From Solirubrobacteraceae bacterium (GTDB taxonomy: Bacteria > Actinomycetota > Thermoleophilia > Solirubrobacterales > Solirubrobacteraceae), in NCBI GenBank assembly GCA_025934395.1, contig JAICYC010000009.1:1-64000 (forward strand): a stretch of 64,000 nt of DNA, written 5' to 3'. Shown here in pieces: positions 666-6,763 of the stretch; the first letter of the stretch is position 1; each line of letters opens with the position of its first letter. A model generated the notes under the pieces. The model had not been told where the DNA came from. It was given only the letters and a program-made list of their open reading frames with translations, and did not search any database. The translations under genes were made by a program, and so were the position numbers.

Positions 666-1292
666 GTGGACGCCTTAAGCAATGATGTGCGGGTGAGCGC
701 CAAGCCCGACGACGACGCCCCCGCACCGGCTCCCCAGAACGGGGCGGGCGTCCTCTCGCAGCTCCCGCGAACTCGCCCGCAGCGTACGAGCGCGCGCCGC
801 GCTGCTGCGCGCGAGGGAGGGGGCGCTGCCCGTCGGGGCCCGGCGAGCGCGCCCGGACACGCCCCCGAGCCGGAACGGACCGCCCGGCCGAAAGCCACCG
901 GGAAACGCTCCGGCGCCGCAAAGCGGAGCGCCGGTGCCGGCGCCGGTGGGGGCACCCCGCGCAAACCGGCTGCTGCGCGGAAGCAGGCCTCCAAGCGCAA
1001 GCCCACCGGCGCGACCCGTTCGGGCACCGCGCGCAAGAGCGCGACGCAGAGCCGTGAACGCTCGAGCCGTGCGCGCAGCGCCCCCCGGGTGCGCGGGCGC
1101 GCGCCGGATGACACCGTCCCCAGCCAGGGCTTCGCGACCGAAGGCGAGCGCGTCACCGGGCCGGTGGCGCCTCCGGGTGGCGCCGAGCTGTTCGCTACGG
1201 CCGCCGAGATCGTCACCGAGCTCGCGCGCGCGAGCGTGTCGAGCGGGGAGCGCTTCGTGCGCGACCTGCTCTCCCGCCTGCCGCTCAACTAG
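666..1292 (+). CDS. Basic Ala/Arg/Lys-rich protein of unknown function
   Basis: About 208 residues, divergent from the sigma factor gene. The first 150 residues are low-complexity and strongly basic, with histone-H1-like stretches such as RKPAAARKQASKRKP. The last 45 residues look structured and amphipathic (GAELFATAAEIVTELARASV, then RFVRDLLSRLPLN), which suggests a short conserved helical domain on a disordered tail. I do not recognise a named family; nucleic-acid binding is only a guess from the charge. The start is uncertain: GTG at 666 is the longest choice and GTG at 693 is equally plausible. The opposite-strand ORF 675..1421 is judged a shadow. Confidence 0.6.
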   Translation: MDALSNDVRVSAKPDDDAPAPAPQNGAGVLSQLPRTRPQRTSARRAAAREGGGAARRGPASAPGHAPEPERTARPKATGKRSGAAKRSAGAGAGGGTPRKPAAARKQASKRKPTGATRSGTARKSATQSRERSSRARSAPRVRGRAPDDTVPSQGFATEGERVTGPVAPPGGAELFATAAEIVTELARASVSSGERFVRDLLSRLPLN

Positions 1293-1353
1293 CGGTTTTA
1301 CCCCGATCTGCAGGAGATCCGTGTCGCGCTCGCGCGCCCCGCGGGCGCTTATG

Positions 1354-1359
1354 TATACT
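1354..1359 (+). promoter_or_regulatory. -10 box TATACT before the riboswitch
   Basis: TATACT is a one-mismatch -10 hexamer in very GC-rich DNA. It lies about 20 nt before the riboswitch aptamer and would place the transcript start near 1366. No convincing -35 element is visible at 17 nt spacing. Confidence 0.55.
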
Positions 1360-1376
1360 GCCGCGCACGCCGAGCT

Positions 1377-1505
1377 GCCCTGACCCAGGTCATGGTGGAC
1401 GGGGGACCCAATGCGGGCCACATGGGCCCGCTGGGGCGAATCGGTCCAACGGACCGTAGCGCCGCTCTCAGCCGCGCGAGCCCGTCAGCTCACCCCGTAG
1501 GCGCC
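1377..1505 (+). promoter_or_regulatory. c-di-AMP riboswitch (ydaO/yuaA leader)
   Basis: The leader contains the conserved blocks of the ydaO-yuaA class in the right order: GACGGGGGACCCAA near 1399, GGGGCGAATCGGTCC near 1433, and GAGCCCGTCAGCTCACCCCG followed by TAGGC, ending near 1503. Variable hairpins lie between them (GCGGGCC/GGCCCGC and GGTCC/GGACC). Riboswitches of this class bind cyclic di-AMP and usually repress cell-wall and osmotic genes when ligand is high. The next gene encodes an RlpA-like wall protein, which fits actinobacterial practice. No classical intrinsic terminator or Shine-Dalgarno sequence is obvious before the ATG at 1518, so the switching mechanism is not visible. Confidence 0.9.
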
Positions 1506-1517
1506 ACAACCGTTTTG

Positions 1518-2012
1518 ATGCGTCTTCGACTGCTAACGACCATGCTCGCGCCTGCCGTGCTGGCAGCCGTGCCCGCCGCGGCGCCCGCCGCGAGCACAGG
1601 GGGTGCGGCAGCGCCAGCCGCCGGCAACGCCACCCGGGCGACGACAGCGCACCGGATCCACACGACGGGCGTTGCGACGTGGTTCGGCCCGGGCTTCTAC
1701 GGCCAGAAGACAGCGTGTGGCCAGACGCTCACGCCTGCGGTGGTCGGCGTGGCAAACCGCACCCTCCCGTGCGGCACGCTCGTCAAGGTGACCTACGGCG
1801 GGCATGCGCTCACGGTGCCCGTGCTGGATCGCGGCCCCTACAGCCACATCGCCGACTGGGACCTGACCGCCGGCGCCGCGCAGGCGCTCGGCGTCAACGA
1901 CACCGTCCGGATCGGGACGCGGATCGTGGGCAGCACCCCGAACGTCCCCACGCTGGGCCTCCCTGCGGTGCCGGAATCGACCGCCCTCGCGGGCGGCGCT
2001 CTGGCGGGCTGA
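1518..2012 (+). CDS. Secreted RlpA-like double-psi beta-barrel protein
   Basis: Translation from the ATG at 1518 gives a signal peptide (MRLRLLTTMLAPAVLAAVPA...), an Ala-rich linker, and a domain of about 90 residues starting at TTGVATWFGPGFYGQKTACG. TPAVVGVANRTLPCGTLVKV and VLDRGPY are hallmarks of the RlpA/expansin-like double-psi beta-barrel. The family acts on peptidoglycan in the envelope, as lytic transglycosylases or wall-binding proteins. The catalogue ORF begins at 1392 inside the riboswitch, so that start is rejected. Total length about 164 residues. Control by c-di-AMP ties it to turgor or wall homeostasis. Enzymatic activity is not proven by the sequence. Confidence 0.85.
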   Translation: MRLRLLTTMLAPAVLAAVPAAAPAASTGGAAAPAAGNATRATTAHRIHTTGVATWFGPGFYGQKTACGQTLTPAVVGVANRTLPCGTLVKVTYGGHALTVPVLDRGPYSHIADWDLTAGAAQALGVNDTVRIGTRIVGSTPNVPTLGLPAVPESTALAGGALAG

Positions 2013-5614: not shown

Positions 5615-6763
5615 ATGACGCAGATCGGCTTCGTCGGGCTCGGGAAGATGGGCGGCAACATGGTGCACCGCATCCGCCGCGACTCCGATCACGAGGTGGT
5701 GGCTTTCGACTTCGACGCCAAGGCGGTGCGCCAGGCGGTGCGACACGGCGCCTCCGGTGCCGCGTCGCTGCGCGAGCTCGTCAAGCAGCTCGAGCCGCCG
5801 CGGATGGTGTGGATCATGGTGCCTGCGGGCGCTCCCACCCAGGAAACCGTCGACAAGCTCGCCAAGCTGCTCGAGCGCGGCGACGCGATCGTCGACGGCG
5901 GCAACTCCAGGTGGACCGACGACAAGCGGCGCGCCTCCGAACTGCGCCGTGCGGGAATCGAATACGTCGACGTGGGCACCTCGGGCGGCGTGTGGGGCCT
6001 CGAGGTCGGCTACTGCATGATGGTCGGCGGGCCCGGCAAAGCCGTCAAACGGCTCGCGCCGATCCTCGACGTGCTCGCGCCCGAGACCACGGAGGAGAGC
6101 CGGGCTGCGATCGGCAGGCGCGGTTGGATGCACTTCGGCCCGGCCGGTGCCGGGCACTACGTGAAGATGGTGCACAACGGCGTGGAGTACGGCCTGATGC
6201 AGGCCTACGCGGAGGGCTTCGACGTGTTCGACAAGTGCGAGTACGAGCTCGACAACGCCAAGATCGCGCACCTCTGGGGACAGGGGTCGGTGGTGCGCTC
6301 GTGGCTGTGCGAACTCGCCGCCCGCGCGTTCGAAGCCGACGGCAACGAGCTCGCGGCGATCGAGGGTTACACCGAGGACTCCGGAGAGGGCCGCTGGACG
6401 ATCGCCGACGCGACCGCGCTCGACGTGCCGACGCCGGTGATCACCGCGTCGCTGTACGAGCGCTTCCGCTCCCGCGGCAACGGCGACTTCGCCGACCGTG
6501 TGCTCGCTGCGCTGCGCAACCAGTTCGGCGGGCACGCCGTCAAGAGCGCGCCCGCTGCCGCCGCCACCGGGCCCGCCGCCTCGCGCGCGTCCGCAAAGGC
6601 GGGCAAACCCGCCCGCGCGGGGAAACGCAAAGCCTCTGCGGCGGCCGCGAAACGCCAACCCGCCACCGCCGCGAAACGCAAACCGGCGGCCGCCGCGAAG
6701 CGCAGACGCCCGCCGGCGGCGAAACGCAAACCGGCCGCCACCTCCGGCCGCGGTAGCAGCTGA
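5615..6763 (+). CDS. gnd: 6-phosphogluconate dehydrogenase (decarboxylating) with a basic tail
   Basis: 382 residues. The N-terminal Rossmann site is GFVGLGKMGGNM (about residues 5-16). The substrate region has VDVGTSGGVWGLEVGYCMMV, and catalytic HYVKMVHNGVEYG follows around residue 190. It oxidises 6-phosphogluconate to ribulose-5-phosphate plus CO2. The folded core (about 307 residues) matches the short GntZ-like class. The last 75 residues are unusual: an Ala/Lys/Pro tail with repeated AAKRKPA units, encoded by imperfect repeats of CCGCGAAACGCAAACCGG. First gene of an operon with zwf, opcA, pgl and a phosphatase; zwf starts 3 nt after its stop. Confidence 0.93.
   Translation: MTQIGFVGLGKMGGNMVHRIRRDSDHEVVAFDFDAKAVRQAVRHGASGAASLRELVKQLEPPRMVWIMVPAGAPTQETVDKLAKLLERGDAIVDGGNSRWTDDKRRASELRRAGIEYVDVGTSGGVWGLEVGYCMMVGGPGKAVKRLAPILDVLAPETTEESRAAIGRRGWMHFGPAGAGHYVKMVHNGVEYGLMQAYAEGFDVFDKCEYELDNAKIAHLWGQGSVVRSWLCELAARAFEADGNELAAIEGYTEDSGEGRWTIADATALDVPTPVITASLYERFRSRGNGDFADRVLAALRNQFGGHAVKSAPAAAATGPAASRASAKAGKPARAGKRKASAAAAKRQPATAAKRKPAAAAKRRRPPAAKRKPAATSGRGSS

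What the first reader, a model, noticed from the sequence alone, without database searches (positions are those of the whole stretch)
1377..1518. c-di-AMP riboswitch controlling an RlpA-like wall protein
The leader has all major conserved blocks of the ydaO class. It links c-di-AMP, an osmotic and wall-stress messenger, to a double-psi beta-barrel wall protein. The expression platform is unclear: no terminator or Shine-Dalgarno is obvious, so the switch may act on initiation in an unusual way.
Basis: partly seen in the sequence, partly recalled or inferred. Interest (0 to 1): 0.55.

Follow-up and report, generated by a model that had tools for sequence, protein, structure and literature searches.

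The report
Pared-down c-di-AMP riboswitch beside start codon
A soil actinobacterium carries a genuine RNA sensor for the stress messenger c-di-AMP in front of a cell-wall protein gene, and in this bacterial group the sensor has lost its usual knot and the usual ribosome-landing site, so it probably switches the gene by sitting directly on the ribosome's landing spot.

Summary
Rfam's c-di-AMP (ydaO/yuaA) model RF00379 matches at 56 bits (cut-off 38, E 2.7e-10), and it is the only Rfam hit in the window. Comparison with 17 orthologs corrects the limits. The aptamer runs about 1368-1503 and starts roughly at the predicted transcription start. The start codon of a secreted RlpA-like (DPBB_1) protein follows at 1518.

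That c-di-AMP riboswitches sit before wall genes in Actinobacteria is known. The leader itself is unusual. Most relatives form a pseudoknot in which an aptamer loop pairs with the sequence just after P1. In most relatives of this order that sequence is the Shine-Dalgarno (SD), and compensatory changes support the pairing. In the window's family, 18 of 24 species of the genus, both the pseudoknot signal (at chance level) and the SD are missing, and AUG lies usually 7-11 nt after P1 (14 in the window). Similar leaders occur in other genera of the order.

Best reading: a translational OFF switch. Ligand-bound P1 and core occupy the 30S landing site. The riboswitch identity is firm; the mechanism is inferred. 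I rate it a new variant of a known kind.

The parts
1352..1359 (+). Putative promoter -10 element TGTATACT; predicted transcription start about 1366-1367
   Evidence: TATACT in 16 of 18 orthologs (15 as TGTATACT) at near-constant distance from the aptamer; no canonical -35 found. Inferred.
1368..1371 (+). P1, 5' strand (CGCC)
   Evidence: Pairs with 1500-1503; pair kept in 18 of 18 orthologs, one with a compensatory CG-to-UA change
1375..1398 (+). First aptamer hairpin (P2-type)
   Evidence: Strong covariation in the RNAalifold consensus, e.g. columns 35/59 and 36/58 with 6 and 10 compensatory sequences
1368..1503 (+). c-di-AMP (ydaO/yuaA) riboswitch aptamer
   Evidence: RF00379 56 bits at 1380-1501; limits extended from the 18-ortholog alignment
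1459..1477 (+). Hairpin whose loop (1463-1473) normally carries the pseudoknot strand; here no partner downstream
   Evidence: Loop/downstream complementarity at chance in the 18 orthologs
1478..1503 (+). Conserved 3' core GAGCCCGUCAGCUCACCCCGUAGGCG including P1 3' strand 1500-1503
   Evidence: All but two columns invariant in 18 orthologs
1504..1517 (+). 14-nt spacer between P1 and AUG, no Shine-Dalgarno
   Evidence: Anti-SD duplex +1.2 kcal/mol; ortholog spacers usually 7-11 nt, sequence not conserved
1518..2012 (+). Secreted RlpA-like (DPBB_1) protein, 164 aa, with signal peptide
   Evidence: PF03330 1.8e-11; 54-71% identical orthologs in the genus; closest solved relative PA4485, PDB 4avr

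Best explanation
This is a c-di-AMP riboswitch of the ydaO/yuaA class that most likely works as a translational OFF switch on a secreted RlpA-like wall protein. The transcript begins about one base before the aptamer (inferred), so the 5' leader is little more than the aptamer plus 14 nt. The start codon has no Shine-Dalgarno and lies close to the base of P1. When c-di-AMP is low, P1 and the core are loose and a 30S subunit can load on the AUG. When c-di-AMP is high, the folded aptamer and its P1 occupy the stretch that must lie in the 30S exit channel (about -15 to -18 here; about -8 to -13 in most relatives), and initiation is blocked. The usual knot that locks the SD in sister riboswitches is absent in this family. 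Shown: the riboswitch, the ortholog-wide architecture, absence of SD and pseudoknot, no terminator. Inferred: transcription start, ligand binding of this member, OFF direction, occlusion.
For: RF00379 match. Ortholog consensus of 40 pairs, 17 with compensatory changes, with the ligand-core columns invariant. 18 of 24 genus genomes have the core followed by AUG within a few nt of P1; spacing is mostly 7-11 nt although the spacer sequence is free. No terminator. Family median anti-SD energy -2.4 kcal/mol against -6.5 for other c-di-AMP riboswitches. Sister riboswitches pair an aptamer loop with the SD or the bases next to or overlapping AUG, with partner changes (CUCUUUC/GAAAGAG, CUCCUUU/GAAGGAG, UUCUUUCU/AGAAAGAA, CGUUGA/UCAACG, GUUCGUUC/GAACGAAU overlapping AUG), so initiation is the controlled step in the clade. 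Real partners beat swapped partners: 5.71 against at most 5.18 over 162 aptamers; the window's family 4.56 against 4.45, i.e. chance. The C. glutamicum nlpC c-di-AMP riboswitch is a translational OFF switch (PMC9960051). The genome encodes a DisA-type c-di-AMP synthase.
Against: No conserved structure sequesters the AUG itself. The window has the longest spacer of its family (14 nt, or 11 if TTG 1515 is used), so occlusion would be weakest there. SD-less genes look common in this genome: only 58% of 52 window ORFs have a best SD of -5 or stronger, against 44% at internal control starts, so missing SD is not in itself a special signal. A Streptomyces c-di-AMP riboswitch has been reported to affect transcript level (cited in PMC9960051). 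Nothing here measures ligand binding or expression.
Confidence: 0.62

Rival explanations
1. Transcriptional control: ligand-bound aptamer stops or pauses RNA polymerase without a canonical hairpin, as suggested for the Streptomyces rpfA switch, and translation is not the regulated step.
For: In S. coelicolor, removing the riboswitch raises transcript level and no terminator is visible (cited in PMC9960051).
Against: No terminator-like site between aptamer and AUG; only 14 nt lie between P1 and AUG; in sister loci the loop pairs with SD or AUG, which points to initiation; the C. glutamicum switch leaves transcript level unchanged.
Confidence: 0.2
2. P1 itself hides a weak Shine-Dalgarno: the AGG of the conserved UAGGCG is the ribosome-binding element, exposed when P1 opens and paired when c-di-AMP binds. 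(A variant of the translational OFF reading, not exclusive of it.)
For: UAGGCG is conserved in 16 of 18 orthologs (UAGGCA and CAGGCG in the others) and AGG is usually 9-13 nt before AUG, roughly SD position.
Against: Anti-SD energy only -2.4 kcal/mol; AGG is 16 nt from AUG in the window; the same bases are conserved in riboswitches that have a separate SD, so conservation is explained by P1.
Confidence: 0.25
3. The switch works in the ON direction: the ligand-folded P1 beside the AUG helps an SD-less start, by keeping the start region open or by taking the place of the SD/anti-SD helix on the 30S.
For: P1 to AUG spacing (mostly 7-11 nt) resembles normal SD to AUG spacing.
Against: The tested members discussed in PMC9960051 are OFF switches; sister loci sequester SD or AUG.
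Confidence: 0.07
4. A decayed aptamer that no longer binds c-di-AMP after losing the pseudoknot; the remaining structure is a constitutive leader.
For: The pseudoknot is part of the canonical structure (PMC5393176) and is missing here.
Against: Core columns are invariant across 18 species while helices keep changing with compensation.
Confidence: 0.07

Closest known systems
c-di-AMP (ydaO/yuaA) riboswitch, Rfam RF00379, e.g. the Thermoanaerobacter tengcongensis ydaO aptamer (PDB 4QLM/4QLN)
   Same: Core sequence blocks and helices, 56 bits, P1 plus the three-way-junction architecture
   Different: Lacks the loop/3'-tail pseudoknot (T. tengcongensis CUCCUUCG/CGAAGGAG); has CUCACC where the consensus has CUAACC, a change also seen in pseudoknotted relatives; no terminator
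Corynebacterium glutamicum nlpC c-di-AMP riboswitch (PMC9960051)
   Same: Actinobacterial, controls a wall protein, no terminator, proposed to act on translation (OFF, shown by reporters)
   Different: Has a GGAG ribosome-binding site for which CTCC pairing was proposed; the window has neither an SD nor a pairing loop
Streptomyces coelicolor rpfA c-di-AMP riboswitch (as cited in PMC9960051)
   Same: Actinobacterial, controls a muralytic enzyme, no canonical terminator
   Different: Reported effect on transcript level; expression platform unresolved
RlpA / DPBB_1 lytic transglycosylase family (PF03330; P. aeruginosa RlpA, PA4485)
   Same: DPBB domain with the DRGP Asp invariant in 12 orthologs
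   Different: 164 aa, single domain, no SPOR domain; the position of His in AHRTLP is Asn, His or Ser; enzymatic activity unknown

Membership tests
c-di-AMP riboswitch (RF00379) | Covariance-model score above the curated cut-off | tested here: met
   56.0 bits against GA 38, E 2.7e-10
c-di-AMP riboswitch (RF00379) | P1 and internal helices supported by covariation in close relatives | tested here: met
   40 consensus pairs, 17 with compensatory changes in 18 orthologs
c-di-AMP riboswitch (RF00379) | Conserved ligand-core blocks (GGGGGA.CC, GGGGCGAAU, GUAGCGC, GAGCCCGUCAGCU.ACC.CG) | tested here: met
   Invariant in 18 orthologs
c-di-AMP riboswitch (RF00379) | Pseudoknot between hairpin loop and the stretch 3' of P1 (canonical in the crystal structure; usual, but not a pairing scored by the Rfam model) | tested here: not met
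   Complementarity at chance: 4.56 observed, swapped partners 4.45; other aptamers 5.71 against at most 5.18. Hence filed as a variant, not a typical member
c-di-AMP riboswitch (RF00379) | Binds c-di-AMP and changes structure | not testable with these tools
   Needs in-line probing or ITC
Translational riboswitch | No terminator; ligand state changes access to the initiation site | tested here: inconclusive
   No terminator, AUG 14 nt from P1; access change not measured
c-di-AMP riboswitch regulon of Actinobacteria | Located before cell-wall genes, c-di-AMP synthase in the genome | tested here: met
   Five riboswitches: two DPBB genes, an M23 peptidase, a PG-binding protein with an NlpC-like end, an NlpC-like secreted protein without Pfam hit; DisA DAC and linker domains
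RlpA-like DPBB protein | DPBB_1 domain above the gathering score | tested here: met
   PF03330 44.6 bits against 28.8
RlpA-like DPBB protein | Lytic transglycosylase activity | not testable with these tools
   DRGP Asp invariant, His position not conserved

The most novel reading that the evidence does not exclude
In Solirubrobacterales a natural class of c-di-AMP riboswitch has dropped the canonical pseudoknot and the Shine-Dalgarno together and controls SD-less initiation purely by placing the aptamer's P1 a fixed short distance before AUG: a riboswitch whose expression platform is the spacing of the aptamer itself.
Probability: 0.45. Interest if true: 0.55.

Novelty: new variant of a known kind. 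Interest (0 to 1): 0.42.

Why it matters
How actinobacterial c-di-AMP riboswitches switch genes without terminators is an open question (PMC9960051 could only speculate). The comparison gives a concrete answer for most of this clade: an aptamer loop pairs with the SD, or with bases touching the AUG, with compensatory changes across species. It also shows a natural experiment in which that lock is gone and the start codon simply sits against the aptamer. Both are directly testable with reporters. It also suggests that a ligand-binding aptamer may be kept without its pseudoknot, which bears on how much of the ydaO fold is needed for binding, and it extends c-di-AMP control of wall remodelling to RlpA-like proteins, which are reported to support NlpC/P60 hydrolases in B. 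subtilis (PMC10653849).

Tried and rejected
Intrinsic terminator between aptamer and gene: none; the only terminator-like stem, 1326-1348, lies before the promoter. Conserved hairpin over the AUG or an anti-P1 stem in the coding start: RNAalifold and single-sequence folds show none in common. In-frame ATG 1392 inside the aptamer as the real start: rejected because orthologs have only short open extension upstream of the AUG (e.g. 173 aa open frame for a 169-aa match in G002) and the start at 1518 gives the signal peptide conserved in relatives. CUAACC-to-CUCACC change as the mark of the pseudoknot-less type: correlated, but also seen in pseudoknotted relatives, so not diagnostic. SD loss as remarkable on its own: rejected, SD-less starts look common in this genome. 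The papers by Nelson 2013, St-Onge 2015 and the ydaO crystal-structure reports were not read (Nelson 2013 is not held); their content is taken from PMC9960051 and PMC5393176.

Full report
What is there. A whole-window Rfam scan returns a single hit, RF00379 (c-di-AMP, ydaO/yuaA leader), at 1380-1501 on the plus strand with 56 bits against a gathering score of 38, E 2.7e-10. The downstream ORF 1518-2012 starts MRLRLLTTMLAPAVLAAVPAAAPAAS (signal peptide) and carries DPBB_1 (PF03330, 44.6 bits), the RlpA-like fold; the closest solved relative is P. aeruginosa PA4485. The window lies in a Solirubrobacterales-type genome (3.0 Mb, 151 contigs, unnamed); named relatives of the protein are mostly Solirubrobacterales, Solirubrobacteraceae or unclassified Actinobacteria MAGs.

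Exact limits. Orthologs of the gene in 17 further species of the same genus have the same leader. Their alignment places P1 at 1368-1371/1500-1503 (CGCC/GGCG), with one species changing a C-G to a U-A. The consensus has 40 pairs, 17 of them with compensatory changes, while the core columns are invariant. The finding's start at 1377 and Rfam's local start at 1380 both cut off P1. A putative -10 (TATACT in 16 of 18 species, TGTATACT in 15) sits at a near-constant distance before the aptamer, so transcription should begin within a base or two of P1 (inferred; no canonical -35).

Genome context. The genome has five RF00379 hits. Besides the window gene, the others precede a second DPBB protein, an M23 peptidase, a peptidoglycan-binding protein with an NlpC-like C-terminus and a secreted protein with an NlpC-like look but no Pfam hit. 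A DisA-type diadenylate cyclase (DAC plus DisA linker) is encoded at G000:C144, and two DHH proteins, possible phosphodiesterases, at C57 and C80. This is the wall-centred c-di-AMP regulon already described for Actinobacteria (PMC9960051).

The expression platform in relatives. Most c-di-AMP riboswitches in the order show a clear rule: the loop of the last hairpin is complementary to the stretch just after P1, and in most cases that stretch is the SD. Examples are CUCUUUC/GAAAGAG, CUCCUUU/GAAGGAG (L018), CUUCUUC/GAAGAAG (L142), UUCUUUCU/AGAAAGAA (L165) and UUCGGU/ACCGAA (L024). The Rfam consensus carries the same pairing (loop cUcUuu, tail aaaGaG), and the pseudoknot is present in the crystallised T. 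tengcongensis RNA (loop ACUCCUUCG, tail CGAAGGAG; PMC5393176). Across 162 distinct non-window-type aptamers the mean best loop/tail helix scores 5.71, against at most 5.18 in 300 random partner swaps and 4.68 in loop shuffles. In a phylum-wide sample, 21 of 24 readable loci had a helix score of 6 or more. In several SD-less leaders of other genera the pairing moved onto the start itself: GUUCGUUC/GAACGAAU overlapping AUG (L223, L225, L226), CGUUGA/UCAACG ending 0-1 nt before AUG (L205-L207), GUCCUUCG/UGAAGGAU overlapping AUG (L157/L230).

The window's family departs from this. Its loop is variable in length and sequence and its complementarity to the downstream stretch is at chance (4.56, swaps 4.45). 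There is no SD: family median anti-SD energy -2.4 kcal/mol against -6.5 for the rest, the -2.4 coming from the AGG inside P1. The AUG follows P1 by 7-11 nt in most of the 18 species and by 14 nt in the window. A pattern search found this core plus near AUG in 18 of 24 genomes of the genus and 68 of 399 of the class. All class hits but one lie in the window's order, and the exception has only a 15-aa ORF. In a phylum sample it was 7 of 397, all in the order. These hits include SD-bearing leaders. Among near-AUG leaders with an ORF of at least 100 aa, 29 of 50 had neither pseudoknot nor SD by the thresholds used. In other genera such leaders stand before DPBB, peptidoglycan-binding and transglycosylase-like proteins.

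Mechanism. Without a terminator, with the AUG against the aptamer and with sister loci locking SD or AUG, initiation is the likely controlled step, OFF with ligand as in C. glutamicum nlpC (PMC9960051). In this family the lock would be P1 and the folded core occupying the 30S exit-channel stretch. No conserved hairpin covers the AUG, so direct occlusion is the simplest reading; a weak SD in the P1 strand is the nearest rival. Cautions: the window has the longest spacer of the family; SD-less genes appear common in this genome; all named relatives are MAGs; nothing tests ligand binding or direction.

Verdict. The riboswitch is confirmed with corrected limits. The gene link is known in kind. The pseudoknot-less, SD-less, AUG-abutting leader is a new variant worth a reporter test.

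Noticed in passing
L067, L069, L072, L073, L079, L083, L087 (PG-binding/NlpC-like gene leaders of the same genus): A second pseudoknot-less arrangement: SD (GAAAGGA) lies 15-30 nt after P1 and is often followed directly by CGCCU, which could pair with the P1 strand AGGCG and form an alternative stem.
   Followed up: partly
L223, L225, L226, L205-L207, L230: SD-less c-di-AMP riboswitch leaders in other genera where the aptamer loop pairs with bases overlapping or touching the AUG (e.g. GUUCGUUC with GAACGAAU of GAACGAAUG).
   Followed up: partly
window 666-1292 (+): Ala/Lys/Arg-rich ORF with no Pfam hit upstream of the riboswitch; a similar C-terminus (TAAEIV.ELA.A..S.GER..RD.LSRL) lies before the riboswitch in ortholog L041, so the neighbourhood looks conserved.
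   Followed up: partly
window 5615-6763 (+): 6-phosphogluconate dehydrogenase-like protein (PF03446, PF00393) with a long Lys/Arg/Ala/Pro-rich histone H1-like tail.
   Followed up: no
window 1326-1348 (+): Terminator-like GC stem running into the putative -10 of the riboswitch promoter; probably the end of the upstream gene, or chance.
   Followed up: no
window 1518-2012 protein and orthologs (alignment A2): The DRGP Asp is invariant but the AHRTLP His position is Asn, His or Ser, so enzymatic activity is uncertain.
   Followed up: partly
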